The position numbers and the translations under genes are program-made. Positions 12,323-54,200 of a DNA stretch of 64,000 bases are shown here, piece after piece. The DNA comes from Clavaria fumosa (Eukaryota > Basidiomycota > Agaricomycetes > Agaricales > Clavariaceae): assembly GCA_951802425.1 (NCBI GenBank), contig OX637800.1, positions 2,728,001 through 2,792,000 of the forward strand. Reading direction: 5' to 3'. Every line of letters begins with the position of its first letter. The first letter of the stretch is position 1. Under the pieces are notes generated by a model. That model worked only from the letters and a program-made list of their open reading frames with translations. It was not told the origin of the DNA and did not search any database.

Positions 12323-13830
12323 CTACACCTTTGCTCTATAATGTAAAGCATTGAGATAGGAAAACAGAGCAGTGCATTGAATTAAAACAAGGAAGTTGTT
12401 AGCCATGACTACTGCCACTTGATCAATAGTGGATGCATGTATTCCACAATAAGCCACAGGAATCCAGCAAAGCTTAAGTCCTGTGAAAGCATTGCATAAC
12501 CATCCATTATTGATGATGTATGGCCATGACCACCAATAGTTTAAATCTCTGTGAATGATGTGAAGCACCCCAGCTCCTGCATCCCACACTCTCACTGTCC
12601 CATCATTAGATCTTGAAACTATACTTGTGCCATCTGGAGAGAATAACACTGATGTGATGTGTTGAGAATAGCCCTCAAGTGTCTGCAGATGACCACCAGT
12701 TACTGCATCCCACACTCTCACTGTTTTGTCAACAGACCCTGAAACTATCCTTGTGCCATCAGGAGAGAATGACACTGATGTGATGTAATCAGAATGGCCC
12801 TCAAGTGTCTGCAGATGAGCACCAGTAACTGCATCCCACACTCTCACAGTGCAGTCTTCAGACCCAGAAACTATCTTGGTGCCATCTGGAGAGAATGACA
12901 CTGATGTGATGAGTTGAGAATGGCCCTCAAGTGTCTGCAGATGACCACCAGTGACTGCATCCCACACTCTCACTGTCCTGTCACCAGACTTTGAAACTAT
13001 TCTTGTGCCATCTGGAGAGAATGACACTAATCAGAATGGCCCCAAAGTGTCTGCAGATGACCACCAGTGACTGCATCCCATACTCTCACTGTTCTGTCAC
13101 CAGACCTTGAAACTATCCTTGTGCCATCTGGAGAGAATGACACTAATGTGATGAAAGAATGGTCCTCAAGTGTCTGCAAATGACCACCAGTGACTGCATC
13201 CCACACTCTCACTGTTTTGTCAATAGATCCTGAAACTATCCTTGTGCCATCTGGAGAGAATGATGCTGATGTGATGTAAGAAGAATGGCCTTTAAGTGTC
13301 TGCAGATGACCACCAGTGACTGCATCCCACACTCTCACAGTGCAGTCCTGAGACCCTGAAACCATCCTTGTGCCATCTGGAGAGAATGACACTGATGTGA
13401 TGTGTTGAGAATGGCCCTCAAGTGTCTGCAGATGACCATCAGTGGCTTCATCCCATGCTCTCAAGTCACAAGACCCTGAAACTGTTATTTTGCCATCTGG
13501 AGAGAATAACACTGATGTGGGGTAATCAGAATGGTCCTTGGGTGTCTGCAGATGAGCACCAGTGACTGCATCCCACACTATCACTGTCCCATCACAAGAT
13601 CCTGAAACCATCCATGAACCATCTGGAGAGAATGATACTGATATGACAAGTTGAGAATGGCCCTCAAGTGTCTGCAGATGAGCACCAGTGACTGCATCTC
13701 ACACTCTCACTGTGCAGTCTTCAGACCCTGAAACTATCCTTGTGCCATCTGGAGAGAATGACACTGATGTGATGTAATTAGAATGGCCCTTAAGTGTCTG
13801 CAGATGACCACCAGTGACTACATCCCACAC
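12323..13830 (-). pseudogene. Truncated NACHT-WD40 C-terminal copy (WD40 repeats plus tail)
   Basis: The minus-strand sequence encodes WD40 repeats of the form SFSPDGTRIVSGS..TVRVWDAVTGGHLQTLEGHS, followed by a tail (HRDLNYWWSWPYIINNGW) closely matching the end of the intact gene at 51203-55842. It is broken by a frameshift near 13027, where about 10 bases of a repeat are missing and the frame ends in HSD-stop. A second break near 13710 turns the conserved RVWDAV Trp codon (TGG) into TGA. The 5' end is cut off at 13830, where an LTR sequence begins, so the NACHT and N-terminal domains are absent. It is a partial duplicate that is no longer a gene. Its repeats could still serve as donors for gene conversion with the intact copy; that is inference. 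Confidence 0.85.
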
Positions 13831-14750
13831 TTAGAAAGAAGCAGGGTAGTCTTGGTGTTGTTGCGGTCACCAAGTGAGACAAGACCTATCAATCACGATG
13901 GTCTCAAGCTCAAAGGGCGTAATAGCCTCAGGCTTAAACCAAAGTGTGTCAATATCAAGTCTAGAGTACCGTAAGTACATGTGAGATTTTATATATGTGC
14001 ATACGGAAGGTATAACAGAAAAGGAAAAGTACAGAGGTTGCCAGGCAACAGAACTATAGTAGTGTGGGGTATGTTTAGTTGTAAAATGACTAGGTGCATG
14101 TTCTACTAAGGTCGCGAGGGGTTAAGAAAGCATAGGTAAGATTGTGAACATGACCTGTCATGGGTTGCAACCTAGTTAAATAAGCATATACATAACTATA
14201 ACTATGGGGGGATTCTCAGATCATAAGCAACATAGTTATAGAGTACTGGGGAGAAGAAGGGGAGCATAATTTGAAGGGTATATGCAGCTGACCGTTGGTG
14301 GCACATTTGAGCATTAAGGTCACAAGGTCATAAGAGTGGTCACATGGGTGATGCTAGTGACGCAGGTGATGCTAGTGGCACAGGTGACTTGGGCAGGAGG
14401 TCACATGGGTAATGCTGGTAACGCAGGTAATGGCCATAACACTGGTAATGTATTAGCACTGGTGGTGGTAGTGACAGGGGTGCTGTGCAGCAAGTCATGT
14501 GCTGGCTGAAGAGGATGTGCAATGGCGTGTCACGCATCAAGATGATGAGTTCAGATGAAGTATATGCATGGGTGAAGTGTAGAGAGGTGTCACAAGTATG
14601 GCATGGTGGTCACGAGTGTTGTGTGAGGGCAGAGGAGGTCGGGGAGGCTTCCAGAAGAGGACGGCGGGTTCCAGAAGTGTATAGAGGGGCTTGCAAGGTT
14701 GTAGAGGGCCATCAGGGGGTTCATAGGTGTTGGTAGAGTTGACTTGGGCA
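13831..14750 (-). mobile_element. Truncated A-family LTR (reverse), split by element A1; rest at 25340-25368
   Basis: The sequence matches the reverse complement of the long A-family LTR, including the inner segment GTGTCAATATCAAGTCT near 13950. Its 5' terminus (reverse complement of TGTCAGGACCCATTCATT) lies at 25345-25368, on the far side of element A1. The bases TTGACTTGGGCA at the left and GGGCAAGGGAAAAATG at the right rejoin into a normal LTR start once A1 is removed. Its other end is missing and abuts the WD40 pseudogene. Confidence 0.8.
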
Positions 14751-16057
14751 TGTCAGGACCCATCCATTTTTCCTCAACCTAACAACTCTATCACCACCCA
14801 TGGACCTCCCAACATTCCCCTACCACCTTGCGAACCCCCCTACACTCTTCCGAAACCCGCTACCAACTTCTGAACACCTCTCAGGCCTCCATCATCTCCT
14901 CACGACACTCGCGATCATACTGTCATACTCGTGTCACCTCCTGCCACCTCACCTTACGCGTACCCACCGCTGAACCCACTATTCGATGCTCAACACACTC
15001 TTACATGACTCCTACAGTGGCATGTGACTTGCCGCATGGCACACCGGTGCTACTCGCATTACTTGCGTTACCAGTGTTACTCACATGACATACCGCCCAA
15101 GGTCACCTGTCTCACCAGCGCTGTCCACGTGACTGCTCACCTGACCTCGCGACCTTAACAATGACACGCGCCACTGGTGGTCAAGCTGTGTATCCTTTTA
15201 AATTATGTTCTCCCTTCTTCTTCTCAGTTGTCTATAACTGCGTTAGCCTTGGACCAAGCACCTCTGCTCAGTTGTAGTTACACATATGCTTATTTAGTTA
15301 GGTTGCGACCCATGACCAGTCATGTCCGCGACCTTACCTATGCTTAGTTTACCCCTTGCGACCTTAGTAGAACACGCGCACAGTCACTCTATGACTAGTT
15401 ATACCCCATACTACTATAGTCTTGTCGCCTGGCGCTCTCTGTACTTTCCCTTTCTCATCATACTCTCTGTACATACATATATATAAGTCTCACATGTACT
15501 TACTGCACTCCGGACTTGATATTGACACATTATTGGTTTAAGCTTGAGGCCCGATGCCTTCTGAGCTTCGAACCAAGTGCGATTGATAGTGCTTGTCTCA
15601 CTTGGTGACCAGATCACACCAAGACCCACTATGCTTTTCTTCTACTTCGTTCTTGATGCTTGTGCGGCTCATGCCACCTAAGTATTCTCTCCTATTCATC
15701 TTGGTATTGATCCTTGGAACCCAACAGGTTCTCTTATCGATCAGCAAGGTCATTGCCTTTGGCCGACCCATTCTCAACATCGTTGCGACCTCACGTGACC
15801 CCTCTCTATCGTCTATTTCTCCCACCTCGTCTATTTCTCTCTCATGCTTTGTTGATTGATGTTGTGACCTCCTCACTTGCCTTTTCTCTTTTATGCTCTG
15901 TCTTCCGATGTTGTGACCTTCCTAGCATATCGACGACCTTCCAGGACCGAGTATTCTTGACTGTACTCAACAGTTGATTGGTTTTAGCGAGTTTGCAAGA
16001 CCGGTCACCAACGAGTTGATATTTGGTATTACTTGCAAGACGGGACAGGCCCTAACA
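14751..16057 (+). repeat. 5' LTR of element A1 (1307 bp)
   Basis: It starts TGTCAGG and ends CCTAACA. It contains a TATA box near 15477 and the predicted RNA start at 15513. Compared with the 3' LTR it differs mainly by C/T and G/A changes at CpG sites. Confidence 0.9.
15477..15523 (+). promoter_or_regulatory. LTR promoter: TATA box and predicted 5' end of element RNA
   Basis: TATATATAAG at about 15477-15486 is followed some 30 bases later by GACTTGATATT (15513-15523). That 11-mer is exactly complementary to the bases just inside the LTR (16059-16069). This is expected if transcription starts at or near 15513 and the RNA 5' end folds back as primer, as described for Tf1. The start site is inferred, not observed. 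Confidence 0.65.
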
Positions 16058-16070
16058 TAATATCAAGTCT
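16058..16070 (+). promoter_or_regulatory. Self-priming primer-binding site of A1
   Basis: AATATCAAGTC (16059-16069), one base inside the 5' LTR, is the reverse complement of GACTTGATATT at 15513-15523. I see no obvious tRNA 3'-end complement here. The same site and distance are kept in the reversed copy at 46564-46575. Confidence 0.7.
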
Positions 16071-16110
16071 CCCCCTCGCCCCACCACTCAACACCCGGAT
16101 AACACCCTAT

Positions 16111-18096
16111 TATGTCTTCCAGTCACACTCCCCAACCAACCACTCATCACTTTCAGACATGCACAGGTAGCTGTGCGATTACTCCAATGATTTTGGAGAC
16201 TACTCGCAAGCCACCTACCACTGTTCAAGAGTGACCCGCATCCGTTGTTCAATCACAGCCCAAAGAATCCACCCAAATCGCACCTAGCCACGCCTCGTCC
16301 CCGCATGAAGAAGCTGAGTCCCTCGTGGAGCAGCTCGGCTACCCGTGCTTTGACCGCCCTTGCCACCGCACCTATCAAATCCTTAACAATACTTGCTGCC
16401 AATATGAGATCAGAACTCTCGATGAAGAACTAGCGTATCTCATTGAGACGATGAATCTCTACAAGGCATTGGTACGATTGACGGATGGATTCTGTTCTAA
16501 CCCTCAGAACCGGTTATACAAGAGTCAGCATCAGTATCCAGGGACTACTGACTGTGGAGTTCCCACTCCCCCTGACCTGGATACCCCCTCGTGACCTCCG
16601 AGACAGGCTCAACCTACTAGAGGACCTCGAGATATGGGCCCGCTTTTCCAGGTCGTGGCACAATCCCTGCAGAACTTCGCAAACCTTGCCGCACCCAATG
16701 AGCGACCCACCATTGTCTCCAGGATCCCCAGATATACCGCCCCTCATAGCAGCTGGCCCACTTGGACGCAGCCAGCCACTACTCCGAGTAGGATGCTCCC
16801 TCGCGACCCTATAGGGACTGAAGCAATGCTTCAACCTGCCCCCCGCCTTGAGATTCCAGTCGAGCCCTTCTGTATTCCACAACCGGAAGCACGACCAGTA
16901 CCCCCGATGGAGACGCGACCAGCATCTCGTCCCCCGACTCAGGCTGAAGCTCCACAGGTCCCTCCGGTCCCCTATGCATCCACACCTTGCCGCTGCACTT
17001 CGAGATGAGGCGCCTGGAACCCACCATCACCATTACTATTACCAGGCCCCTCCCTCTGAAGGACCATCGGCCTGAGATGCCTTCGCTCGACACCAGGCAT
17101 CCTGAACCATTCAATGGTCATGACTGACACAAGTGGAAGCCTTTCGTCACGGAATGCCTAATGACTTTCTTCGCGAAGCCCGTAACCTTCCAAGGAGATC
17201 ACGAGAGGGTTACTTTTGCTGCCTCTTACCTCACAGACACCGCGCAGAGCCACTACACCTCCCTCCTTCAATTCAATGCCAAACACCCGGCTCTACATCC
17301 CTGGGAAGGATTCATCCATGAGTTTGGAGGGATGTTTGGAGTGGTCAACACACAGATTGAAGCCGACCAGAACCTCTGTATGTTTCAGATGGGCGAAAAC
17401 GAACATTTCTCAAACCACATTATCCGCTTCGAGTCTTTCGCCTTTGAATCCAACTGGAACTCAGCTGCCCTTCAATCGGAACTCTACCGTTCATTGTCCA
17501 CATGCATTAAAAAGGCCATGAAAGTCATTCCACCACCTACGACATACCAAGAACTTCGAGATTTGGCCATGCAGATTGATCAGAGGCATTGGGAATATGA
17601 GAGTGAGACCCGCCAAACTCAATTCCGTGCTAACCCTCCTGCTCCTCATCCCCCTGCTCAACAAGGCAGAAATTGCCCCTTGGCTCAACAAGGTGGAAAT
17701 CGCAGCTACCAAACGACGTTGCGACCTTATCCCACCACTGGCAATAACCCTACAACACCCCGACCAGCTGCAGGAAACCCTGCGACTTCACCGCGACCCG
17801 CCAATCTGCCTCGCCAGCCAAATCTCAATCCGAATCCGCCCTACGTCCCCCTTAGCGATGAGGAATGAGAACGTCATCGTCAGGGAAACCTCTGCATGAG
17901 ATGTGGGAAGCCCAGACACTACAGCACTGCTTGTCCCGACTGACGAGTAGCAGGATGAGCCGTGTTTACGCTCAAGGAAGGAGAGGAAGACTTCCAGGAA
18001 GTGTATGAAGTCGAAGAAGAAGTGGAAGAGGATGTCGATGATCCGCACAAAGAGTTAAACGAGGAAGTGACTCAGGAGCTTCCGGGGGAACTCTGA
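16111..18096 (+). pseudogene. A1 gag (capsid and zinc knuckle), several stops
   Basis: The frame starts at ATG 16111 (MSSSHTPQPTTHHF) and runs in one frame to TGA 18094-18096, interrupted by several stops. One is a TGA shortly before 16240; another is the TGA at 17866-17868. A long capsid-type region (17161-17865) contains FAKPVTFQGDHE, SYLTDTAQSHYTSLLQF, WEGFIHEFGGMFG and a Pro/Gln-rich linker. After the 17866 stop the same frame gives CMRCGKPRHYSTAC, a CX2CX4HX4C zinc knuckle, then an acidic tail (VEEEVEEDVDD). Gag would package the element RNA. The reversed relative at 46400 has CAA where this copy has its first TGA, which points to an ancestral CGA. Pol continues in the -1 frame after 18090. 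Confidence 0.85.
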
Positions 18097-21000
18097 GTCG
18101 CGATGAACCAACCCCCATACTCGCGCGGGCTGCGACTAGTTCCTCCTCTCCTCAGTTTCTTTGTGACTTTTCTAATACTCCTAATGCTTCCCAGTCCTCC
18201 CAATCCTTCCTCATAAAGACACAAATCCCAGATTTCAGTTCGACTCCCCTAAATACTCTTGTTGACTGCGGCGCATCCATGAATTTTATCGACTCTGTAC
18301 TCGCGAACACCTGTCCGAACCTCCTAATACCACTCCCGCAACCCCTACCTCTCCAATACTTCGACAGAAGTTCCTCCAGCTCCAACATAACCCACTACAT
18401 CCTCGCTAACATGAAGTTTCCCAACGATACTATCCAATCCATTAAGTTCCTCGTCACTAAGACTCATCCTCTCACCCCTGTGGTTCTAGGACTTGATTGG
18501 TTGCGAACCTGGAACCCCAAAATCGATTGGACCAACCTCACTTTTAGTTTTGGACAGACAGCCTGCTCCGCGACTATCCCTCTCACCCTTCTGGATGCGA
18601 AACTCCTGAATAAACCTCCTCCTGACCTCGCGAACTCAACACCAAAACCTTCTAAACCCCCGTGAGTTCAATTGGTCAAAGCCACCACGCTTCGTCGCTT
18701 GGAGCAACAAGGAGAATTTATAGGTCTCTTATACTTCCAACCTGCGAACAACCCCTATGACAACGAATCCATACTCGCGAGTTCCGCGACCATGCAACCC
18801 CCTCCAAAACCCGAAGAAACAGTCCTGCACGAGTACCATGACTTCCTAGACGTCTTTTCCAAAGATCTAGCCTGGGAACTACCTCCGCACCGCGACTATG
18901 ACCACTGAATCGAACTTGAGGAAGGTGAAACACCTCCTCACAGGAAGCTATACAACATGTCAGAAGTGGAGTTAAAGATGTTGAAAGATTATTTGGATGA
19001 CATGTTGGATAAAGGCTTCATTCGGCCATCGAAATCCCCCGCAGGTGCACCGGTACTCTTCGCGAAGAAGAAAGATGGAGGCCTTCGCCTCTGCGTCGAC
19101 TATCGAGGTCTCAACAAAATCACCCGCAAAAACCGCTACCCTATCCCCCGAATCGAGACCCTCGTCAACCAGTTATGTTCGGCCAAAATCTACTTGAAGA
19201 TCAACCTCCATGTTGGGTATAACAACATGAGGATAGCTGAAGGAGATGAGTGGAAAACTGCATTCCGCACCTGCTACGGCGCGTTTGAATATCTTGTTAT
19301 GCCATTTGGACTCACGAACGCACCCGTGACCTTTCAGCACCTCATGAATGATATCTTCCATGATTTGGTCAACGTGAACATGGTAGTTTACCTTGACGAC
19401 ATCCTAATCTACTTGGACAACCTCGAACAACATCGCGACCACGTCCGAGAGGTCCTACAACGTCTACACAAGGCAGACCTACATGCATGACCCGAGAAGT
19501 GTGATTTCCACACTGCGACGGTCGAATACCTCGGGGTTATAGTGTCCCCTGACGGAATCACAATGGACCCTTCGAAAATTCAAGCCATCCTCAGCTGGCC
19601 CGTACCTACGAAGATTCGCAACCTTCAGAGCTTCCTTGGCTTCGCCAACTTTTATCGGAGATTTATTGACAACTATTCAGGCATTGTCATTCCACTCACA
19701 TGACTCCTCCGCAAGGATACGCCATGGAAATGGAGCCCATAATGTCAACAGATTTTCGAGACCCTCAAGCAGGCCTTTACTGAAGCCCCCGTCCTCCAGC
19801 ACTACGACCCCGATGACCCCATCACCCTCAAATGCGACGCTTCTGACTACACCATAGCGGCCATTCTCTCTCAAACCAATCCCATGACCAACGAACTACG
19901 CCCCATTGCTTTGTACGCACGGACAATGATTGCCACGGAGCTCAACTACAATATATATGACAAAGAGCTCCTTGCGATCCACGAAGCTTTCAAGCAATGG
20001 CGAGCATATCTTGAAGGCACGAGATACCAAGTACAGGTCTTCTCCAACCACAATAATTTACGATATTTTACCACCATGAAGCAATTAAGCCACCGACAAG
20101 CCCACTGGGCTGAGTATCTTTCCAGCTTTGATTATGTTATTCATTATCGAGCAGGAAAGTTAGGCGCAAAGCCAGATGCCCTCACGCGACAACCCGACGT
20201 CTACCCGAAGAAGGCCGACCAACCCGCGACCAATGCCCTCAACAACAAGGTCACGATACCACCGGAACTCCTTCGAGCAGCCGTCATACTCAACGAAGAG
20301 GCCCTATTCCCGCAAATTCGACACACTCCTCACGACCCGTACTTCACCAAGAGGTCCCAGGGCATTTCACAAGGTCGCAAGAAGGCTTTTTCGCTCTCAC
20401 CCGACGGTTTACTACTACTTCACAATGGTAAAATAACATTCCTGACCACGACTCCCTCCGGTTCGATATCCTACACTCAAACCACGACCACAAACTATGT
20501 GGACATCCAGGTATAAGAAAAACAACTCAACTAATAAATAGGTTGTTTTTCTGGCCAGGACTTCGCAAAGACATAACTGCCTACGTCCGTGGTTGTCACA
20601 CCTGCGCAAGAGCAAAACCCGTCCGACACAAACCCTATGGACTCCTCAAACCCTTGCCCATAGGCGAGTGACCTTGGTCTTCGATCTCAATGGACCATAT
20701 CGAAGCCCTCCCTCTCTCCGCGACCTTTGACTCGATCCTTGTCGTCGTCTGCTGACTTACGAAACAAGCGATCTTCATCGCCACCAACACTACTGATACC
20801 ACGAAAGAACTAGCCCATCATTTCGTCACCCACGTCTTCTCGAAACATGGGCTACCTGCGGACATAGTGTCGGATAGAGGAAGATTATTTGTTTCTAAGT
20901 TTTGGTCTTCGTTATGTCAGGCTTTGGACATTACTTCAAATCTTTCCACAGCCTACCATCCTGAGACCAATGGACAAACTGAACAAGTCAATCAAATATT

Positions 21001-21754
21001 GGAGCAATACATTCGAATCTATATGAACTACCAGCAGGACGACTGGACTTACCAACTCCCACTCGCAGAGTTTGTATACAATAACACCCCCCATAGTGCG
21101 ACTGGCGTCTCCCCATTTTTCGCGAATAAGGGGTACAACCCCCGGCTCATGATTTCTCTCAAGGACATACCCACGCACGAGGCCCACATGGTCGCGACCG
21201 ATCTCAAGATGCTCCATCAGCACCTACAAGATCAACTCAAGGTTGCGAACGAGGCCTACTTGCACTTTGCAGATAGAAAGAAAGAGGTTACACTGGATTG
21301 GAAGGAAGGGATGAAAGTGTGGTTAGACTTGCGAAATGTGAAGACGAAGAGACCAATGAAGAAGCTGGATTCGAAACAAGCCAGACCTTTCCCTATACTT
21401 GCGAAAGTCTCGACTGATGCCTATCGCCTCCAGCTTCCAAAATCAATGCAAGGAATTCACGTTGTTTTCCATGTCTCATTACTTGAGAAGGTCTACGACG
21501 ACACCTTCCCCCAGCAACAACAGCAACCCCCGCCCCCTATTGAAGTCGACGGCGAACAACACTATGAAGTCGCTGACATATTAGATTCTCGAAGGAGGGG
21601 TAGGAAAGTGCTCTACCTTGTACGTTGGGAAGGTTATGGACCCGAGGATGACACCTGGGAACCCATAGAATCACTTTCCGGATCGAAGGAACTCCTCGAA
21701 GATTTCCACACAACCTACCCGGACAAGCCTCGCGCAACCCACGCAACTCAATAA
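18097..21754 (+). pseudogene. A1 pol: protease, RT, RNase H, integrase, chromodomain, broken
   Basis: Protease: LVDCGASMNFID near 18260-18290, with Cys in the usual DSG/DTG position, then VVLGLDWL. RT (about 18957-19640): [30 protein letters not shown] and the catalytic YLDD. A TGA follows LHA at 19488-19490. RNase H (to about 20170): CDASDYTIAA, DKELLAIHEAFKQWRAYL, and SNHNNL where TDH is usual. Integrase: the two His residues of the zinc-binding domain are missing where the frame changes near 20516, but GCHTC, MDHIEALP, VSDRG and the Glu helix (QTEQVNQILEQY) are present. A chromodomain (YEVADILDSRRRGRKVLYLV, WEGYGPEDDTWEP) ends the protein at 21754. The enzymes would copy and integrate element DNA; the chromodomain would guide insertion to marked chromatin. 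Several TGA/TAG stops block expression. Confidence 0.9.
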
Positions 21755-21854
21755 TTTTTCCTTGCCTTATTTTTGCCTTTTGTCTTCATTTTCTCACTTT
21801 GAACTTCACAGTAATATATATACACGATAAAAATACAACAAAGAAAAAATCTAT

Positions 21855-23895
21855 CTACTGGTCGCAAGCTTTTTCCTTCCCCTTTTGCGACCCTTCTACC
21901 CCATCCCCACCTTCCACACTCGCGACTTTTTCTTCCTCTCCCCCCTTATCCTCCTTTCCAACCACAGGACCCTTCAACTCCACACCCCACTGGTCCACCC
22001 TCAGGAGATCCAATAGTTCCCTCCACACGTGACACTGCTCCTGCTCTGCCCATTTCTCCACCCATGGTGGGAGCTCTTGAGGCGACTTCAGCAAGAGGTC
22101 TTCGTAGGCAAAGAAGACCGTTTCGAGGCCTCATCGTCCTCGAAATCGAGCCTTGCGGAGCTCACCGACCATCGTCACGCACCGACTGCGCAATTCTAGA
22201 AACAAACTGTCAGCCCATCATCAAGAATACGAAATCTGCGATGACTTACCTCATTCCTGCTCCCTCGATGCTGATAACTCCATCTCCATCTTCCCTACAG
22301 TCGCAAACAATCCTATAAAAAAGACATGAATTAGTTCGTTTTATACTCGTGACTGTAGAACTTACCGTGTTCCGACTCCTCCGCCTCCGCGAGCCTACGC
22401 TGAAGCTCCTCCAGTTCAATCCTTTGATCTAGATAAACAGGAGAATCAGTTAGAATGTCACAAGGCGAAATTACGACTTACCAGCCCATTCCTTTTTCAC
22501 CGTCGCGATTACCCCCTTTACTTCCTCAAATCCTTCACGAGTCTTTCCCGTCAACGCCAACCACTCTACGGGCAAATTAGCTTATTTCACACTTGCGAGA
22601 GTTGACTTACCTTCTTTCTCCTTCTTCAAATCCCTTACCTCGCAACGCGACCCTCTCAATTTGGTCTCCTGGTCTGAGAAAACAAGGAATTACTTTGTGA
22701 CATGGTAAAACAAATGAATACTTACCTTCCCAGTCACCCTCAAGCGCCTTGAAATCCCTCTCCACCTCCACTATCCGCGCCCTCAATTTCGCGATCTCTG
22801 CATCCACCACCTCCCTCCCGAGCCCCGCCAACATGCGAATTCAGTAAAAACACAAAAAGCTAGGGAGCATTGGATACTTACCTTTGTCACCCCTCCGCAA
22901 TGCTACCAACTCGTGCTTCGCTACTGCCAGCTCTGCATCCAACTCCATCTCCCGATGCGACTTGTATAGCCATGCGATCTTCTGCGTGGGTTCCGCGACT
23001 TGCTGACAGAGCGTCGCAAGCTCCCTCTCGAGATCGGCTCTTGGGACCAAGATCCCCGCGACCTTCCCTCCCTCCTCCACCAACTCCCTTGACAACACCG
23101 GTTTTGCGACTCACCTTTTTGTCGATGGACCGGGTGTCGGGGACCGTGACTGGGCCCTGGTTCATTTCCTGTGAGTTGGCTGGATAGGAGTCCCTGGAAC
23201 GGACAGGGTAGCGTACCCTGCCCCCACTTGACTTGCGACCTTCGGAGTCGCCACCCCCACCGTTTCCGATCCTTCGGCACACTTCAGCGCCTTGTCGACC
23301 CACGCATCATCCCAACTGTATTCATTCTTGACGCACCATCGCCGAAATTCTTGGACCCAGGAACATTTGCCATGGTCCTCTGCGCACTGGCGACACTTGC
23401 CGGCAGTGCTACACACACACTGCCGGCCCTTTGCGACACAATTGTCGCAGTCCTGTGTTTTAACAATTAGAAGGGACAAGTGGAACGAGAAATACTATTA
23501 CACACCTCACACTCCCTCTTGTTCCACTCCTTATTCTCCTTCACTGTCCCGATTTTCTTCCAAGCTTTCAGAAATTCCATGGGCGACGGGTCAGCCCCGC
23601 CCGCGACTTTGCCCCTTATTCTGCTAGGGCCCGCAACATTTTCTTCCGCCCGACTTGGGCCCGCAACGTCGCTCCTCATTTCATTAGAGCCTGCGACCTT
23701 GCCCTTCTTCTTTTCATGCCCCGCGGTTTCTTCGCGAAGACGTGCGCATCGCTCTTGCTCGGCCTTTTGGTGGGCCAACATCTCAGCCAGTGCCTCTTTG
23801 TCATGACTAGCCTCACCCCTTTCGAACTCCTCGTATTCGCGCATTTCGTGTTCGAGTTGGGTTCCAGTGCGTTTGAGGATGTTGGAGGAGACCAT
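21855..23895 (-). pseudogene. Antisense spliced gene inside A1: Zn2Cys6-like cluster plus coiled coil (about 10 exons)
   Basis: Exons read on the minus strand at about 23895-23506, 23452-23217, 23168-23116, 23087-22882, 22828-22726, 22673-22611, 22565-22482, 22428-22366, 22312-22251 and 22195-21855. Introns are about 50-60 nt, mostly with GTAAGT donors, and phases agree (0, 2, 2, 1, then 1 throughout). The acceptor before 22828 is unclear. The first exon is charged (EYEEFERGEASHDKEALAEM) with VAGPSR repeats. Exon 2 has six cysteines spaced CX2CX6CX7CX2CX6C, the Zn2Cys6 DNA-binding pattern, followed by WCVKNEYSWDD. Later exons are heptad-rich helices (DLERELATLCQQ, IELEELQRRLAEAEE). The last exon has PPWVEKWAEQEQCHVWRELL and an acidic/Lys tail. 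Three TGA codons (exons 3, 9 and 10) sit where CGA fits. About 530 codons. DNA binding or a regulator of the element is inferred. Confidence 0.7.
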
Positions 23896-23999
23896 GGTGG
23901 TTGGACCTAGAGAAAAATTTCGGGTGTCATGACCTGATCAACAAACATCGCGCTGACTAACAGTCACATGACCTCCACTCTCGCAGGGCTCAAGGCTTG

Positions 24000-24011
24000 A
24001 AGGGGGGGTAA
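24000..24011 (+). promoter_or_regulatory. Polypurine tract of A1
   Basis: The run GAAGGGGGGGTAA lies directly before the 3' LTR start (TGTCAGG at 24012). This is the expected place and composition for the plus-strand primer. Confidence 0.6.
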
Positions 24012-25339
24012 TGTCAGGACCCATCCATTTTTCCTCAACCTAACAACTCTATCACCACCCATGGACCTCCCAACATTCCCCTACCACCTCGCGAACCCCC
24101 CTACACTCTTCTGAAACCTGCTACCAACTTCCGAACACCTCTCGGGCCTCCATCATCTCCTCACAACACTCAAGATCATACTGTCATACTTGCGTCACCT
24201 CCCGCCACCTCACCTTACGTGTACCCACCGCCGAACCCACTATTTGATGCTCAACATGCTCTTACACGACTCCTACAGTGGCATGTGACTTGCCGCATGG
24301 CACACCAGTGCTACTTGCATTACTCGCGTTACTCGCGTTACCAGTGTTACTCACGTGACATACCGCCCAAGGTCACCTGTCTCACCAGCACTGTCCATGT
24401 GACCGCTCACCTGACCTTGCGACCTTAACAATGAAATGCGCCACCAGTGGTCAAGCTGTGTATCCTTTCAAATTATGTTCTCCCTTCTTCTTCTCAGTCA
24501 TCTATAACTGCGTTAGCCTTGGACCAAGCACCTCTGCTCAGTCGTAGTTACACATATGCTTATTTGGTTAGGTCGTGACCCATGACCAGTCATGTCTGCG
24601 ACCTTACCTATGCTTAGTTTACCCCTCACAACCTTAGTAGAACAAGCGCACGGTCACTCTACGACTAGTTATACCCCGTACTACTATAGTCTTGTCGCCT
24701 GGCGCTCTCTGTACTTTCCCTTTCTCGTCATACTCTCTGTACGTACATATATATAAGTCTCGCATGTACTTACTGCACTCCAGACTTGATATTGACGCAT
24801 TATTGGTTTAAGCTTGAGGCCCGATGCCTTCTGAGCTTTGAACCAAGCACGATTGATAGTGCTTGTCTCACTTGGTGACCAGATCACACCAAGACCCACT
24901 CTGCTTTTCTTCTACTTCGTTCTCGATGCTTGTGCGGCTCATGCCACCTAAGTATTCTCTCCTATTCATCTTGGTATTGATCCTTGGAACCCAACAGGTT
25001 CTCTTATCGATCGGCAAGGTCATTGCCTTCAGCCGACCCATTCTCAACATCGTCGCGACCTCACACGACCCCTCTCTATTGTCTATTTCTCCCACCTTGT
25101 CTATTTCTCTCTCACACTTCGTTGATTGACGTCGCGACCTCCTCAGCGACCTCCTCACTTGCCTTTTCTCTTTTACGCTCTGTCTTCCGACGTCGCGACC
25201 TTCCTAGCATATTGACAACCTTCCGGGACCGAGTATTCTCAACTGTACTTGACAGTTGATTGGTTTTAGCAAGTTTGCAAGACCGGTCACCAACAAGTCG
25301 ATATTTGGTATTACTTGCAAGATGGGACAGGCCCTAACA
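24012..25339 (+). repeat. 3' LTR of element A1 (1328 bp)
   Basis: It matches the 5' LTR end to end and carries a short extra copy of CTCAGCGACCTC near 25140 that accounts for most of the 21-bp length difference. In the first 260 bases I count about 17 differences from the 5' LTR. All but one are transitions, nearly all at CpG, TpG or CpA. Confidence 0.9.
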
Positions 25340-25368
25340 GGGCAAGGGAAAAATGAATGGGTCCTGAC

Positions 25369-43229: not shown

Positions 43230-46200
43230 CAGCTGTGGGAGCAGGATTAGGAGGTTTGGATGGGTGTTCACAAGTACAAAATCAATAAAATTCATTGATG
43301 CACCACAATCAACAAGAGTATTTAAGGGAATGGAGCTGAAATCTGGGATTTGTGTCTTTATGAGGAAAGATTGGGAGGACTGGGAAGCAATAGGTGTATT
43401 AGAAAAGTTGTGAGGAAACTGAGAGGAGGAGGAACTAGTCGCGGCCTGCATGAGTATGGGGGCTGATTCGTTATTGCGACTCAGAGTTCCCCCAGAAGCT
43501 CCTGAGTTGCTTCCTCATTTAACTCTTCATGCGGGTCATCCACATCCTCTTCCACTTCTTCCTCAACTTTGTACACTTCCTGTAAGTCTTCCTCTCCTTC
43601 CTCCAGCATAAATATGGCTCAATCTGCATCACCAAATCTCGAAGTTCCTGGTATGTCATGGGTTGCAGAATGACTTTCATGGCCTCTTTAATGCATGTGG
43701 ACAGTGAATGGTACAACTCCGATTGTAAAGTGGCTGAGTTCCAGTTGGACTTGAAGGACTTGAAATGGATGATGTGATTCAAGAACCACTTGTTTTTGCC
43801 CATTTGCAACATTCGGAGGTTCTGGTCTGCCTCAATCTGTGTGTTAACTACTCCAAACATTCCTCCAAACTTGCAGATGAATCCTTCCCAAGAATGTAGG
43901 GCTGGATGGTTGGGATTAAATTGGAGGAGTGAAGTGTAGTGGCTCTGCGCAGTGTCCATGAGGTATGAGGCTGCAAAAGTGACCTTCTCGTGATCCCCTT
44001 GAAAGGTTATGGGTTTTGCAAAGAAAGTCATTAGGCATTCCATGACAAAGGGCTTCCATTTGCACCAGTTGTGACCATTAAATGGCTTGGGGCACCTAGT
44101 GTCAAGCTTGGATTCTCGAGCAAAAGCATCTCAAGCTGATGGTCCTTCAGAAGGAGGGGCCTGATAGTAGTAGTGGTGGTGATGGGTACCAGGCACCTCA
44201 TCTCAAAGGGCGGCAGTGAGGTGCAGAGACATAGGGGAGACCAGAGGGATCTGTGGGGCTTCAGCCTGAGACAGGGTGTGAGATGTTGGTCACATCTCCA
44301 TCAGCATCAGGGGTACTGGTCATGATTCTGGCTGTGGAATATGGAAGGGCTCGACCAGAATCTCCAGGTGGGGGGCAGGTTGAAGAGTTGCTTAGGTCCC
44401 TACAGGGTCATGAGGGAGCACCCTGCTTGGGGTAGCAGCTGGTTGTGTCCAAGTGAGCCAGCTGCTGTGAGGGGTGATGTACCTAGGGATCCTGGAAATA
44501 ATGGCGGGTCACTTGTCTGGCACAGCAGGATTGGCAAAATTCTGCAGAGATTGAGCTGCAACTTGGAAAAGTGGGGCCATGTCTTGGGGTCCTCTAGCAG
44601 GCTGAACCAGTCTCGAAGGTTGTGAGGGGTATCCAGGTCAGGAGGAGTCGGAACTCCATGGTCAGTTGTCCCTGGATACTGACACTGACTCTCATATAAC
44701 CAGTTCTGTGGGTTTGCTCGGAATCTGTCTGTCATTTATGCCAAGGCCTCATAGAGGTTTGTGGTCTCTATAAGGTATGCCAATTCTTCATCAAGGGTTC
44801 CTGCTTTGTACTGGCAACAAGTATTATTGAGAATCTGGTAAGTATGGTGGCAAGGATGGTCAAAGCGCAGGTAGCGGAGCTGCTCCATGTCAGGACCCAT
44901 TCATTTTTCCTTTGCTCAAGCCGACTTTACCAACACCTACGAGCCTCCCGACAGCCCTCTGCAACCTCGCGAGCTCCTCTACACACTTCTGGAACCCGCC
45001 ATCCTCTTCCGGAAGCCTCCCTGACCTCCCCCATGTTCACACAACACTCACGACCACCATACCATACTTGCAACACCTCTCTCCCTCTCACCCACATGTA
45101 TACTTTGCCCATACCCACCACCTCAATGCGCGACATGCCCTTGTGCATCTTCTTCAGCCGGCACATGACTTGCCATGCGGCACCCTGGTGCTACTACTAC
45201 CAGTGCCAATACATTATCAGTGTTACGACCATTACCCGTGTTACCAGTGTTACCCATGTGACTTCCCATCCAAGGTCACCTGCATCACTACCGTCACCCA
45301 TGTGACCACTCTTATGACCTTGCAACCTTAACACTCAAATGCGCCACCAACAGTCAGCTGTATATACCTTTCAAATATGCTCCCCTTCCTCTCCTCAGTC
45401 ATCTATAACTATGTTACATATGATCCAAGAGTCCCCCCGTAGTTATAGTTATGTATATACTTATTTAACCAGGTCACAACCCATGACTGGTCATGTTCGC
45501 AACCTTACCCATGTGTTCCTAACCCCTTGCAACCTTAGTAGAGCATGTGCATAGTTACTATATGACTAAACATACCCCGCACTACTATAGTTCTGTCGCC
45601 TGGCGACCTCTGTACTTTTCCTTCTTCATTATACTCTTCTGTACACACATATATAAGTCTTGCATGTACTTCTCGTACTGTAGACTTGATATTAACACAC
45701 TTTTGGTTTAAGCTTGAGGCCACAATGCCCTTTGAGCTTGGAACCATCATGATTGATAGGTCTTGTCTCTCTTGGTGACCTCAAGATCACCAAGACACCT
45801 CTACTCTATTCTAAACTCGTCCTCTGCACTCGTATAAACTCATGTGCCTAAGTATTCTCTCTTATTTGTCTTGGTACTGATTCCTTTGAACCCCATAGGT
45901 TCTCTTGTCAGTTGGCAAAGTCATTGCCTTCACTGACACATCTTTCGACACCATGGCGACTACCTGCGACTCACTCAGCATCGTCTCTTTCTCCCACTTC
46001 GTCTATTTCTCTTTCTATGCTTCGTCAGTCAACCTTGCGACCTTCTCAGCAGCATCTCTTCTCCCCCAACTTGTCTTTTTCCTCTTTCCACTTCATCTAC
46101 CAACTTCGCGACCTCCCCAGCGATGTCTCCCTCTCTACTTGTCTCTCCTCATTCTTACATCTTCTCAGATGTCTTCACAACCTTCTGGGACTGAGCATTC

Positions 46201-46563
46201 TCGACTGTGCTCAACAGTTGACTGGTCTTAGTGAGTTTCCAGGATCGGTCACCAACAAGTCGACTTCCAGCATTACTTACAAGACAGGACAGGCCCTAAC
46301 ACTCCACAAGGGACTCAGCTTCTTCACACAGGGACAAAGCATGGCTGGGGGTGACTTGAACAGGTTCCTCAGGCTGCAATTGAACAACAGATGCAGGTTG
46401 TTCCTGGGTGGTGGTGGGCAGCTCACATGTTGCCTCAAAAGCCATTGGAGTGATTTCCCGGCTGCTGGTACATGTCTGGAAATGATGGGTAATTGGTTGG
46501 GGAGGAGTGTGACTGGTAGACATAATGGTGTTATCCAGGTGTTGAGTGGTGGGGCAAGGGTGA
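43230..46563 (-). pseudogene. A3 gag and protease remnants
   Basis: The gag N-terminus is at about 46523-46307 (HHFQTCTSSREITPMAFEA, EEAESLVE), interrupted by the solo LTR. Gag continues at about 44882-43640 (SQCQYPGTTDHGVPTPPDLD; FAKPITFQGDHEKVTFAASY; FGGMFGVVNTQIEADQN). The protease start follows at 43400-43250 (TLVDCGASMNFIDFV), joined after a deletion that removed the zinc knuckle. The protease Cys (DCG) is the same as in A1. One codon is CAA (TTQEQPA) where A1 has TGA, so the ancestor was probably CGA. Non-functional. Confidence 0.85.
44888..46301 (+). mobile_element. Complete solo LTR (A family, plus, 1414 bp) inside A3 gag
   Basis: It begins TGTCAGGACCC and ends GGCCCTAACA, flanked by a perfect CTCCA duplication (44883-44887 and 46302-46306). 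Without it the flanks rejoin as the gag codons corresponding to CTCGTGGAGCAGCTC in A1. Confidence 0.93.
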
Positions 46564-47726: not shown

Positions 47727-49081
47727 TGTCAGGACCCATTCATTTTTCCCTTGCCCAAGCCAACTCTACTGACACCTATGAACCTCCCGACAGCCCTCTA
47801 CAACCTTGCGAGCCCCTTTACACACTTCTGGAACCTGCTGTCCCCTTCTGAAAGCCTCTCCGACCTTCCCCACCCTTACATGACACTTGCAACCACCACG
47901 CTGTACTCGGGATGCCTTCCCTCATCACACCTTATGCATACCTACCACCTGAACCCACCAAATTGACGTGCGACATGCCATTATGCATCTTCTTTAGCCA
48001 GCATGTGACTTGCCATGTGGCACCCTTGGTGCTACCACTATCAGCACCAATACGTTATCAGTGTTACGACCATTACCTGTGTTACCAGCATTACCCATGT
48101 GACCTCCTGCCCAAGGTCACCTGCATCACTACCGTCACCCACATGACCACTCTTATGACCTTGTGACCTTAGCACTCAAATGCACCACCAATGGTCAGCT
48201 GTATATGCCTTTCAAATATGCCTTCCTTCTTGTCCCCAGTAGTCTATAACTATGCTAGTTATGATCCAAAGACTCCCCCATAGTTATAGTTACATATATG
48301 ATTATTTAACCAGGTCGCGACCCATGACTGGTCATGCTCGTGACCTTACCTATGCTTTCCTAACCCCTCGCAACCTTAGTAGAGCACGCGCATAGTTACT
48401 ATATGACTAAACATACCCCGAACTACTATAGTTCTGTCGCCTGGTGACCTCTGTACTTTTCCTCTTTCATTATACTCTTCTGTATGCATGTACATGTATA
48501 TAAGTCTCACATGTACTTCTCATACTGTAGACTTGATATTGATGCACTTTTGGTTTAAGCTTGAGGCCATGACACCCTTTGAGCTTGGAACCATCACAAT
48601 TGATAGGTCTTGTCTCTCTTGGTGACCTCAAGATTGCCAAGACACCTCTGCTCTATTCTAACTCATGCGCTTAAGTATTCTCCTTGGTACTGATTCTTCG
48701 AACCCCATAGGTTCTCTCATCAGTTGGCAAAGTCATTGCCTTCACTGACTTATCTCTCAACACTGTCGCAACTACTTTGTCTATTTCTCTTTCTATGCTT
48801 CATCAGTCAACCTTGCGACCTTCTCAGTAGTATCTCTTCTCCCCCAACTTGTCTTTTTCCTCTTTACACTTCGTCTACCAACTTCACGACCTTCCCAGTG
48901 ACATCTCCTTCTCCCTACTTGTCTATTTCTATTCTTACGCTCTTTCAGATGTCCTTGCGACCTTCTGGGACTGAGCATTCTCGACTGTGCTCAACAGTTG
49001 ATTGGTCTTAGCAAGTTTCCAGGATCAGTCACCAACAAGTCGACCTTCAGTACTATTTACAAGACGAGACAGGCCCTAACA
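47727..49081 (+). mobile_element. Complete solo LTR (A family, plus, 1355 bp) inside the A3 LTR
   Basis: It begins TGTCAGGACCC and ends GGCCCTAACA, with a perfect AGGGG duplication (47722-47726 and 49082-49086). The host LTR resumes at 49087 and ends with its own terminus near 49312. Confidence 0.93.
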
Positions 49082-51202: not shown

Positions 51203-54200
51203 TTAATGAAGAGGTAGATGTATTTGGGTATTGAGATAGGAAAACAGAGCAGTGCATTGGAGTAAAACAAGGAAGTTGTTAGGCATGACTACTGCCACTT
51301 GATCTATAGTGGATGCACGTATTCCACGATAAGCCACAGGAATCCAGCAAAGCTTGAGTCCTGTGAAATCATTGCATAACCATCCATTATTGATGATGTA
51401 TGGCCATGACCACCAATAGTTTAAATCTCTGTGAATGATGTGAAGCACCCCAGCTCCCGCATCCCAGACTCTCACTGTCCCATCATGAGACCTTGAAACT
51501 ATACTTGTGCCATCTGGAGAGAATAACACTGATGTGATGTAATCAGAATGGCCCTCAAGTGTCTGCAGATGACCACCAGTGACTGCATCCCACACTCTCA
51601 CAGTGCAGTCTTCAGACCCTGAAACTATTTTGGTGCCATCTGGAGAGAATGATACTGATGTGATGCCTTGAGAATGGCCCTCAAGTGTCTGCAGATGACC
51701 ACCAGTGACTGCATCCCACACTCTCACTGTCCTTTCATCATACTTTGAAACTATCCTTGTGCCATCTGGAGAGAATGACGTAACTGATATAAGGTAACCA
51801 GAACGGCCCTCAAAAGTCTGCAGATGACCACCAGTGGCTTCATCCCCTGCTCCCAAATTACAAGACTCTGAAACTATCCTTGTGCCATCTGGAGAGAATG
51901 ACACTAATGTGATGAAAGAATGCTCCTTAAGTGTCTGCAGATGACCACCAGTGACTGCATCCCACACTCTCACTGTTTTGTCAATAGATCCTGAAACTAT
52001 CCTTGTACCATCTGGAGAGAATGATGCTGATGTGATGTAAGAAGAATGGCCTTTAAGTGTCTGCAGATGACCACCAGTGACTGCATCCCACACTCTCACA
52101 GTGCCATCCCAAGACCCTGAAACTATCCTTGTGCCATCTGGAGAGAATGACACTGATGTGATGTATTCAGAATGACCCTCAAGTGTCTGCAGATGACCAC
52201 CAGTGACTGCATCCCATACTCTCACTGTGCAGTCTTCAGACCCAGAACCTATCTTGGTGCCATCTGGAGAGAATGACACTGATATGATGCGTTTAGAATG
52301 GCCCTCAAGTGTCTGCAGATGACCACCAGTGACTGCATTCCACACTCTCATTGTATTGTCACTAGAGCCTGAAACTATCCTTGTGCCATCCGGAGAGAAT
52401 GACACTGATGCAATGTATTCAGAATGACCCTCAAGCGTCTGCAGATGACCACCAGTGACTGCATCCCACACTCTCACAGTGCAGTCCCAAGACCCTGAAA
52501 CTATCCTTGTGCCATCTGGAGAGAATGACACTGATGTGATGTATTTGGAATGACCCTCAAGTATCTGCAGATGACCACCAGTGACTGCATCCCACACTCT
52601 CACTGTCCTGTCATGAGACCCTGAAACTATCCTTGTGCCATCTGGAGAGAATAACACTGATGCAATGCGTTCAGAATGACCCTCAAGTGTCTGCAGATGA
52701 CCACCAGTGACTGCATCCCACACTCTCACAGTGCAGTCCCAAGACCCTGAAACTATCCTTGTGCCATCTGGAGATAATGACACTGATGTGATGCCTTTAG
52801 AAGCCTCAAGTGTCTGCAGATGACCACCAGTAACTGCATCCCACACTCTCACTGTATTGTCAACAGACCCTGAAACTAACCTTGTGCCATCTGGAGAAAT
52901 TGACACTAATGTGATGGAATCAGAATGGCCCTCAAATGTCTGCAGATGACCACCAGTGACTGCATCCCACACTCTAACTGTCTTGTCACTAGACCCTGAA
53001 ACTATCCTTGTACCATCTTGAGAGAATGACACTGATGTGACAGAATTAGAATGGCCTTCCATGACTTGCACACATAAACTCCATTTTTTCCTTAATGCCC
53101 CTTTCAATGTCACTGCACCTTCCATCTGCTGGTGATAGGTTTTGTATATTTCAGTGCCAAATGGGGTGAAGGGTAAAGCTGTGAAATACACATGCAAGGC
53201 AGACACACTGATGGCTGGAAAGAACTCTTGAATCATTCTTTCACCATCATGTAATAGTGCCAAGACTGCTGTATCTGTATGATTCTGTGTCTACAAAAGA
53301 CCACATGTAAGTTTTGCCAACCTTATTTGACAAGTACACACTTACTGCAAGACAGGCATGCACAGATGCCAACATTTGTAATGCATTTTTCAGATACCCA
53401 AGAAGGCTGCAGACCTCTATCCAGTGTAGTAAATGATTTGAGCAAAAATATCCCAGAAGCTTCAACACATCACTTGATAGCTTGCCACTGCAAATATGCA
53501 CACCCCAATATCTACATGCATACTGCAAACTGCATGAGATGTGTCCTGATATCATCTCTGGGAGATCTGGCACCTCATGGTTGAATTTGGTGGGATCTCT
53601 TATGCCACAAATATCCTTCTTCAACCTTTGCATCACAATCAGGCATTTCTCAGCAAGAATGCTGTGCTGCTCATGAGGATCAACTCTAAAATGTTGGTCT
53701 TGACATCTGGTAGGATCCACAATGAAGTCAAAGAATGATGGGTGGATCAATCTAATAACTCCAACATTATCATTTGGAACTGTGATGATTGCCTGCAGCT
53801 GCAGAAGGTAACCATTGACACTAACATCACATCCAAGCAGATCCTCCAGTTGAGTTGCTGGGAGAGGATCCTGTAGGATAGCAATGGCACCAAGAATCAA
53901 TTGCAATTTGGCTCCAAGGTGATCAGAAATATTTGGGAATGCAGTGTTGAGCACTTGGGAGTACAACTGGTCCAGATGCTGCAGAGGAGAGAATCCAGTA
54001 ACAGACTTTGTGTTCAACAGTATCTTCAATTGCCCTATGGGATCAGCAACATCAATGAACCTTGCTGCAGTAGCAGCAAATATGAACAGCCCAGAGGACA
54101 TATGGGTCAAGGCCTCAATGTCTGTAGAGGATGGCCACGATTTGGGAAGATAATATTTCTTCTTGATGATATCAAGGTGCCATGTCAGATAGTGCTGGAT

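What the first reader, a model, noticed from the sequence alone, without database searches (positions are those of the whole stretch)
21855..23895. A retrotransposon carrying a spliced antisense gene with a Zn2Cys6-like cluster
Between the chromodomain and the 3' LTR of A1, the minus strand shows about ten exons with strong donors and agreeing phases. They encode CX2CX6CX7CX2CX6C followed by long coiled coils. Antisense frames occur in some plant LTR elements, but a multi-exon antisense gene with a fungal-type DNA-binding cluster inside a chromovirus is unusual and may be undescribed. Introns on this strand survive retrotransposition because the element RNA is made from the other strand. It could control the element's LTR promoter or its silencing.
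Basis: partly seen in the sequence, partly recalled or inferred. Interest (0 to 1): 0.9.

Follow-up and report, generated by a model that had tools for sequence, protein, structure and literature searches.

The report
Spliced antisense gene in fungal retrotransposons
One clade of fungal retrotransposons carries, on the strand opposite its own gag-pol genes, a many-exon gene that is conserved across the clade; its protein is predicted to bind DNA and would likely steer the element's own activity, and its introns likely outlast copying through RNA because they lie on the opposite strand.

Summary
Element A1 (LTRs 14751-16057, 24012-25339) carries an antisense gene, ATG 23895 to TAG 21855, with 8 exons. 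This copy is broken (four in-frame TGA, one lost acceptor). In this genome the gene marks one chromovirus clade: its last exon lies convergent to the chromodomain at 83 of 91 clade loci and 0 of 59 other chromovirus loci. At least 6 of 31 copies read have an open spliced frame (two by prediction). dN/dS in the antisense frame is 0.17-0.37 in 51 of 51 pairs, lowest of six frames. Exon lengths of five lineages agree modulo three; intron lengths vary freely. The six cysteines are nearly invariant. Coil exons of 42, 63 and 84 nt (2, 3, 4 heptads) differ in number between lineages. Beyond the finding, TCGCGA and its overlapping words are enriched in LTRs, gag-pol and antisense genes alike; it is the leading palindromic 6-mer in each and sits in 6 of 7 introns of one copy. 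Two stretches from chromovirus families without the gene have none. I propose, as inference, a VANC-like factor that binds its own element. There are no RNA or binding data. It is a new variant of the antisense extra genes known in plants, Botrytis and HTLV.

The parts
14751..16057 (+). 5' LTR of element A1 (TGTCAGG...CTAACA)
   Evidence: LTR pair 92.2% identical over 1329 aligned bases; ends
24012..25339 (+). 3' LTR of element A1; a 5-bp repeat GGGCA flanks the element (14746-14750 and 25340-25344)
   Evidence: repeat read directly from the sequence
17128..21754 (+). gag-pol remains ending in integrase and chromodomain, broken into several frames
   Evidence: Pfam RVT_1, SH3_Tf2-1, Chromo above cut-off; Retrotrans_gag and rve below it
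23896..23980 (-). conserved leader, promoter-like by position, between 3' LTR and ATG
   Evidence: median difference 0.11 in 10 pairs of five lineages; intron median 0.42 in 36 pairs of nine copies
23506..23895 (-). antisense exon 1 (ATG at 23895)
22882..23452 (-). antisense exon 2: six-cysteine cluster and basic stretch; two in-frame TGA in this copy
23363..23449 (-). CX2CX6CX7CX2CX6C cluster
   Evidence: six Cys kept in 31/31, 31/31, 29/29, 30/31, 31/31, 31/31 copies and in P0001
22726..22824 (-). antisense exon 3 (99 nt here, 144 or 93 nt in other lineages)
22611..22673 (-). antisense exon 4, 63 nt, coil module
22482..22565 (-). antisense exon 5, 84 nt, coil module
22366..22428 (-). antisense exon 6, 63 nt, coil module, resembling exon 4 by eye
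22250..22312 (-). antisense exon 7, 63 nt, coil module; in-frame TGA in this copy
21855..22195 (-). antisense exon 8 with the conserved block RGLETVFFAYEDLL; in-frame TGA in this copy; stop at 21855-21857
   Evidence: three-helix model of an open copy, pLDDT 84-92 over residues 11-60
23453..23505 (-). intron 1, phase 0
22825..22881 (-). intron 2, phase 1; acceptor AG lost in this copy, kept in the 20 others of A1
22674..22725 (-). intron 3, phase 1
22566..22610 (-). intron 4, phase 1
22429..22481 (-). intron 5, phase 1
22313..22365 (-). intron 6, phase 1
22196..22249 (-). intron 7, phase 1
14909..25198 (.). 20 TCGCGA palindromes scattered through LTRs, gag-pol and antisense gene (first at 14909, last at 25193)
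   Evidence: 20 of the window's 31 sites lie in 14751-25339; 31 observed, 6.1 expected for the window

Best explanation
This is a protein-coding gene on the antisense strand between pol and the 3' LTR of one chromovirus clade, with 8 exons in this element and dN/dS of 0.17-0.37 between lineages; its product is predicted to bind DNA through a six-cysteine zinc cluster, likely as a coiled-coil dimer, would have the TCGCGA words that dot the same elements as its target, and would act in the nucleus as the element's own anti-silencing or transcription factor. Shown: the gene, its exon plan, its position, its conservation and the TCGCGA density. Inferred: that it is transcribed from the short conserved leader beside the 3' LTR, spliced, translated, zinc-binding and dimeric. 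Inferred and weakest: that TCGCGA is its target and that binding keeps these CpG-containing sites, and so the element, open (as VANC does for Arabidopsis VANDAL elements) rather than shutting it down. Introns would persist because the RNA that is reverse-transcribed comes from the other strand, where they are not spliced.
For: Gene: last exon convergent with the chromodomain at 83 of 91 loci (chromodomain identity 64% or more), none on the same strand, median gap 108 bp; 0 of 59 loci of other chromoviruses. dN/dS in the antisense frame 0.17-0.30 (15 of 15 pairs, A1) and 0.19-0.37 (36 of 36 pairs, A2), lowest of six frames in every pair; four other frames have medians 0.90-1.27, and the frame that shares its wobble position 0.35 and 0.42. 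Exon lengths agree modulo 3 in L013, L021, L025, L026, L028 although they differ by up to 54 nt; 20 of 23 intron gap patterns are not multiples of three. Open spliced frames in L013 (557 aa), L021-L023 (575 aa) and, by prediction, L033 and L035. Six Cys nearly invariant. Relatives elsewhere: P0001, which appears to read through the same intron 1 and to end in intron 2, P0002, P0003 and 13 last-exon proteins. Target idea: with each site counted once, TCGCGA ranks 2nd, 10th and 3rd of all 6-mers in antisense genes, LTRs and gag-pol and first among palindromes in each, and 292nd of 2063 in the rest of the window; words ahead of it include its overlaps CGCGAC, GCGACC and AGGTCG. 6 of 7 L021 introns hold it, 0.15 expected, and in exons it falls in three codon phases; 13 of 15 sites in L021 lie in the element fragment; 29 in L018, 2.8 expected; 0 and 0 in stretches of two families without the gene, 1 and 0 in two arbitrary host stretches. 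The zinc-cluster dimer Rsc3/Rsc30 binds CGCG (PMC6959994, passages); VANC21 binds a short motif enriched in its own TE family, also in VANC introns (PMC5735166, passages).
Against: No RNA, methylation or binding data. Zn_clus is below Pfam's cut-off (10.3 against 21; 3 of 15 members, best E 1.5); the cluster region of the model has pLDDT 45-59 and no meaningful PDB match. My first word count counted palindromes twice and overstated TCGCGA as the top word; recounted, it is 10th in the LTRs, where other words unrelated to it rank as high. The link between gene and TCGCGA rests on stretches of two families without the gene and could reflect shared ancestry of one clade. VANC motifs lie mainly in non-coding DNA, these lie in coding DNA too. 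Most copies read are decayed, and among 13 close copies dN/dS rises to 0.41. Blumeria shows that spliced antisense TE transcripts can be non-coding (PMC10648671, passages).
Confidence: 0.42

Rival explanations
1. The gene is real but works as a repressor of its own element, like HTLV HBZ: the product binds the LTR or a host factor and damps gag-pol transcription or copy number.
For: Same strand and a comparable place as HBZ, which is made from spliced and unspliced antisense RNA, is nuclear and lowers 5' LTR expression (PMC10186651, passages); six TCGCGA sites in the two LTRs, 0.9 expected.
Against: Sites run through gag-pol and introns, not only the LTR; no bZIP domain.
Confidence: 0.25
2. 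The product is an accessory structural or nucleic-acid chaperone protein (particle, nuclear import or integration site choice), not a regulator.
For: Coil-like exons, a basic stretch and a zinc-binding-type cluster also suit such roles; the plant antisense proteins have no settled function (PMC7264820, passages).
Against: A separate leader and the antisense strand would uncouple it from gag-pol output; the TCGCGA pattern is left unexplained.
Confidence: 0.17
3. Only the antisense RNA matters (dsRNA, RNAi or lncRNA); the reading frame is incidental.
For: Spliced antisense lncRNAs of TEs exist in Blumeria (PMC10648671, passages).
Against: dN/dS 0.17-0.37 in the antisense frame, frame-preserving exon length changes between lineages, nearly invariant cysteines.
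Confidence: 0.04
4. A host gene captured recently by one copy, or host genes that sit beside elements by chance.
For: Some copies stand without an LTR near contig ends (L021-L024) and a second six-Cys frame lies next to them.
Against: 83 of 91 clade loci carry it in the same place and orientation. An ancient capture at the root of the clade is not excluded.
Confidence: 0.03
5. The TCGCGA density is a by-product of composition, CpG mutation patterns or exon/intron duplication and has nothing to do with the protein.
For: Introns 6 and 7 of L021 share a 12-bp stretch around the site; decayed lineages L025-L028 have 1-6 sites in 7.5 kb; in the LTRs it is only 10th among 6-mers.
Against: Enriched over dinucleotide shuffles and order-2 expectation in three different parts of the element and absent from stretches of two other chromovirus families.
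Confidence: 0.33

Closest known systems
Antisense additional ORFs between pol and 3' LTR of plant elements (Grande gene23, RIRE2, Retand TRP28/SMC proteins, PvRetro13)
   Same: Position, orientation, presence in most copies, SMC-type or predicted DNA-binding products (PMC7264820, PMC11963269; passages)
   Different: Both papers hold no word beginning 'intron' or 'zinc'; here 7 introns, module exons and a six-Cys cluster in a fungal chromovirus. Sequence relation not tested.
brtn of Botrytis Boty-like elements (Zhao 2011)
   Same: Antisense extra gene in a fungal chromodomain element (named in PMC7264820, PMC8365987, PMC4227169; passages)
   Different: Zhao 2011 itself was not seen; brtn's sequence, exons and domains were not compared.
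HTLV-1 HBZ
   Same: Antisense gene with a spliced form and a nuclear product with a bZIP that regulates the provirus (PMC10186651, passages)
   Different: bZIP there; here a six-Cys cluster, 8 exons and a leader outside the LTR.
VANC anti-silencing proteins of Arabidopsis VANDAL transposons
   Same: Element-encoded factor paired with a short motif enriched in the same TE family, motifs also in introns of the factor gene, variable exon plan (PMC5735166, passages)
   Different: The motif there is YAGTATTAY, in tandem repeats of mainly non-coding DNA; VANDALs are DNA transposons (recalled). Here binding and anti-silencing are untested.
Fungal Zn2Cys6 factors such as Rsc3/Rsc30
   Same: Cysteine spacing (spacing rule recalled); zinc cluster plus dimerisation; Rsc3/Rsc30 bind CGCG (PMC6959994, passages)
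   Different: Below the Pfam cut-off; cluster lies after about 130 residues, not at the N-terminus.

Membership tests
Antisense extra ORF of LTR elements (aORF-3R) | lies between pol and 3' LTR, antisense to gag-pol | tested here: met
   window 21855-23895 between the chromodomain stop at 21754 and the LTR at 24012; convergent at 83 of 91 loci
Antisense extra ORF of LTR elements (aORF-3R) | present in most copies of the family | tested here: met
   83 of 91 scored loci with chromodomain identity 64% or more
Antisense extra ORF of LTR elements (aORF-3R) | transcribed from its own promoter | not testable with these tools
   no RNA data; leader conserved
Zn2Cys6 (PF00172) | CX2CX6CX5-12CX2CX6-8C spacing (rule recalled) | tested here: met
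   CX2CX6CX7CX2CX6C, Cys nearly invariant in 31 copies
Zn2Cys6 (PF00172) | Pfam gathering score | tested here: not met
   10.3 bits against 21; 3 of 15 members, best E 1.5
Zn2Cys6 (PF00172) | binuclear cluster fold | tested here: inconclusive
   two short helices in the cluster but pLDDT 45-59; no meaningful PDB match
VANC-like anti-silencing system | short motif enriched in the own TE family and rare in others | tested here: inconclusive
   TCGCGA enriched in the clade and absent from one 5.2-kb stretch of each of two other families; too few families for a firm answer
VANC-like anti-silencing system | protein binds the motif and lowers methylation | not testable with these tools
   needs an experiment
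VANC-like anti-silencing system | sequence homology to VANC | not tested
   no direct comparison; Pfam gave no family above cut-off for the protein
HBZ-like bZIP | bZIP domain | tested here: not met
   no bZIP among the Pfam hits
brtn (Botrytis Boty) | sequence similarity to BRTN | not tested
   sequence not held

The most novel reading that the evidence does not exclude
A fungal retrotransposon clade runs its own sequence-specific anti-silencing system: a spliced antisense gene makes a zinc-cluster dimer that binds TCGCGA palindromes which the element has accumulated through its LTRs, coding regions and introns, in the manner of VANC but invented independently in a retroelement and built from exchangeable coil exons.
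Probability: 0.27. Interest if true: 0.92.

Novelty: new variant of a known kind. Interest (0 to 1): 0.8.

Why it matters
Antisense extra genes of LTR elements have been described in plants and fungi without a settled function (PMC7264820, passages). Here the gene, its conservation and a candidate DNA target occur together in a clade that can be compared with other chromovirus families of the same genome, so the function becomes directly testable. It also shows a retroelement keeping a gene with seven introns and varying its exons as modules.

Tried and rejected
Rejected: one-copy host capture; chance ORFs; a sense-strand gene in the same place (the sense frame sharing the wobble position has dN/dS 0.30-0.53, above the antisense frame in all 51 pairs, and it would have to run through the introns, whose gap patterns are mostly not multiples of three).

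Corrected on checking: one search counted palindromes on both strands and so made TCGCGA look like the top 6-mer; one search counts each site once. It stays the leading palindrome in the three parts of the element but ranks 2nd, 10th and 3rd among all 6-mers. The splice-site count was also recounted (143 of 147).

Led nowhere: search of viral and of bacterial/archaeal contigs for relatives (nothing confirmed); PDB sequence searches with the cluster and with profile A3 (chance matches or designed coils); fold of exon 2; the last exon gave a three-helix model but no PDB match better than E 1.3. A splice-chain predictor worked for L013, L021, L033 and L035 but gave wrong or partial chains for copies such as L029, L030, L032, L036-L038, so the number of open copies is a lower bound. 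Paper searches were seen as listings (titles, starts of abstracts; one search listed none); I saw no title or abstract start that names such a gene in basidiomycete elements, but most subscription papers are not held.

Limits of the counts: one search listed 150 of 151 matches and I entered 120, dropping the last 30, mostly short matches to residues 1-53; one search scored 150 of 1625 candidates; the A2 pair L021-L013 repeats an A1 pair; pairs are not independent; L021-L024 are near-identical.

Full report
The element. A1 spans 14751-25339 with LTRs of about 1.3 kb, 92.2% identical over 1329 aligned bases, with mostly transition differences (84 of 97, which includes a few flanking columns) and a 5-bp repeat GGGCA on both sides (sequence). 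Reverse transcriptase and chromodomain score above Pfam's cut-offs, gag and integrase core below, and the frames are broken.

The gene. On the minus strand an ATG at 23895 in the context CCACCATGG opens a gene of 8 exons that ends at a TAG at 21855. Introns here are 45-57 nt, the first in phase 0 and the other six in phase 1 (phases from then on open copies of the same plan). This copy has four in-frame TGA codons and has lost the acceptor of intron 2, so it is a broken copy.

Not a single copy. A DNA search of the own genome returned 61 matches to the 2-kb region. Protein searches found 151 matches to the cluster exon, 41-99% identical among the 150 listed, and 109 to the last exon, 34-100% identical; the tool calls such counts lower bounds. 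I aligned 20 further copies with the window (A1) and then ten more divergent ones with two of these (A2), 31 copies in all.

Position. Of 150 scored chromodomain loci (of 1625 candidates), 91 have 64% identity or more to A1 and 59 have 43-53%. In the first group 83 of 91 have the last antisense exon within 600 bp, convergent, median gap 108 bp, and none on the same strand; 70 of 91 have the cluster exon within 3.5 kb on the opposite strand. In the second group it is 0 of 59 and 1 of 59 (the cluster-exon table held 120 of the 150 listed rows). Conversely 84 of 109 last exons have a convergent chromodomain next to them and 25 do not, among them the four copies L021-L024. Loci with long open pol frames (1237 aa beside L032 and L037, 993 aa beside L036) carry the gene too, although I found no intact frame of the antisense gene in L032, L036 or L037.

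Conservation. With my own Nei-Gojobori code, 15 pairs among six lineages in A1 gave dN/dS 0.17-0.30 (median 0.21) and 36 pairs among nine copies in A2 gave 0.19-0.37 (median 0.27) in the antisense frame. In each alignment four of the other five frames have medians between 0.90 and 1.27; the fifth, on the other strand, shares the wobble position and has medians 0.35 and 0.42. The antisense frame is lowest in each of the 51 pairs. Among the 13 close copies of A1's own family the median is 0.41 against 0.48-0.83 in the other frames (78 pairs), as expected if single copies decay after insertion. One pair occurs in both sets and pairs are not independent. Exon lengths in five lineages differ by up to 54 nt yet agree modulo 3 in all eight exons; the sixth, L027, is frameshifted. 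Of 23 intron gap patterns 20 are not multiples of three; of 18 exon patterns 11 are not, these being changes in one or two copies or a pair that adds to nine.

Open copies. Open spliced frames are L013 (557 aa), L021, L022 and L023 (575 aa; near-identical), and L033 and L035 by splice prediction: at least 6 of 31.

Product. The six cysteines are kept in 31/31, 31/31, 29/29, 30/31, 31/31 and 31/31 copies, against a mean of 0.74 for the exon, and in P0001, the only outside relative that covers them. A basic stretch of the type KRTRARSRSPTPGPSTSKRR follows, then coil exons and a C-terminal block with a three-helix model. Coil exons of 42, 63 and 84 nt are 2, 3 and 4 heptads; L033-L035 are predicted to have nine exons, L021 and L013 eight, and the alignment A2 shows coil exons missing in other lineages. 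L031 is a mosaic: in two windows of its second exon it is closer to L032 (0.95-0.97 against 0.71-0.78 for L037), in its last six windows closer to L037 (0.89-0.98 against 0.50-0.79 for L032), so parts are exchanged between lineages.

Relatives elsewhere. P0001 (385 aa, 48% identical over about half the query) appears to read through the same intron 1 and to stop in intron 2. P0002 and P0003 match the cluster exon behind the cluster, and 13 proteins on short ENA and JGI contigs match the last exon; several appear to begin in the intron before it, so they would come from genomic DNA. One scan each of viral contigs and of bacterial and archaeal genome contigs confirmed no relative.

Target candidate. 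With each site counted once, TCGCGA is found 46 times in the antisense genes of six lineages (11.9 expected from an order-2 model), 6 times in the two LTRs (0.9) and 10 times in gag-pol (2.5); among all 6-mers it ranks 2nd, 10th and 3rd, and first among palindromes in each; in the rest of the window it is 292nd of 2063. CGCGAC, GCGACC and AGGTCG, which overlap it in the context AGGTCGCGACC, stand near or at the top, but the LTR list also holds unrelated words of like rank. My earlier count took palindromes twice. The window has 31 sites, 6.1 expected; 20 lie in A1. L021 has 15 (3.7 expected), 13 of them inside the element fragment, and L018 has 29 (2.8 expected). In L021 six of seven introns hold it, 0.15 expected, and in exons it falls in three codon phases; the other five copies looked at have it in 1-3 of 7 introns. 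All ten stretches L029-L038 have 3-9 sites in about 2.45 kb; the decayed L025-L028 have 1-6 in 7.5 kb. Stretches of 5.2 kb from two chromovirus families without the gene have none (0.8 and 0.4 expected); two arbitrary host stretches of 5 kb have 1 and 0. Genome-wide GGTCGCGACC occurs 187 times, its reversal 58 times and the control palindrome GGTGCGCACC 30 times. A protein-coding cause is unlikely because introns and LTRs share the word; duplication is possible for introns 6 and 7.

Mechanism. I commit to a nuclear, element-encoded factor that would bind TCGCGA along its own element and hold it open, at 0.42 for the whole reading; the gene itself I hold at about 0.95. Precedents: VANC21 of Arabidopsis binds a short motif enriched in its own TE family, also in introns of the factor gene (PMC5735166, passages); the zinc-cluster dimer Rsc3/Rsc30 binds CGCG (PMC6959994, passages); HBZ of HTLV-1 is a nuclear antisense regulator with a spliced form (PMC10186651, passages). 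Whether it activates or represses is open.

Known kinds. Antisense extra genes between pol and the 3' LTR are known in plants (PMC7264820, PMC11963269; passages) and in Botrytis (brtn; named, original not seen). Spliced but non-coding antisense TE transcripts are known in Blumeria (PMC10648671, passages). A survey of fungal LTR elements holds no word beginning 'antisense' in its main text (PMC3248453). So this is a new variant of a known kind, not a new kind.

Noticed in passing
L021-L024 (C4, C2, C1, C11; about 4-152 kb from contig ends): Four near-identical fragments holding the whole antisense gene with its leader and part of the chromodomain, without LTR at the leader side; the frame is open in three of four. 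They may be a gene that outlived its element.
   Followed up: partly
L023:5296-6009 (-), also L022:5228-6022 (-): A second, different open frame with CX2CX6CX8CX2CX6C beside the orphan antisense gene; perhaps a host family from which the element gene came.
   Followed up: no
many of its last 30 rows, such as C2:33118 and C9:3352695: A repeated family matching only about residues 1-53 of exon 2 (the cluster), with the same kinds of stops, several near contig ends.
   Followed up: no
C2:4875211, C1:5270765, C4:23503, C11:2819688: A second set of last exons without adjacent chromodomain, about 15 kb from L021-L024 on the same contigs.
   Followed up: no
L039 (C1:307800-313000) and similar loci: Another chromovirus family with open pol frames of about 1216 aa in many copies of equal score, without the antisense gene next to it.
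   Followed up: partly
L031: Mosaic antisense gene, part of the second exon from one lineage and the 3' half from another.
   Followed up: yes
window 12323-13698 and 51230-53126: Arrays of WD40-type repeats, about 126 bp apart.
   Followed up: no
window 44888-46301 and 47727-49081: Two further LTR-like copies of related type in the same orientation.
   Followed up: no
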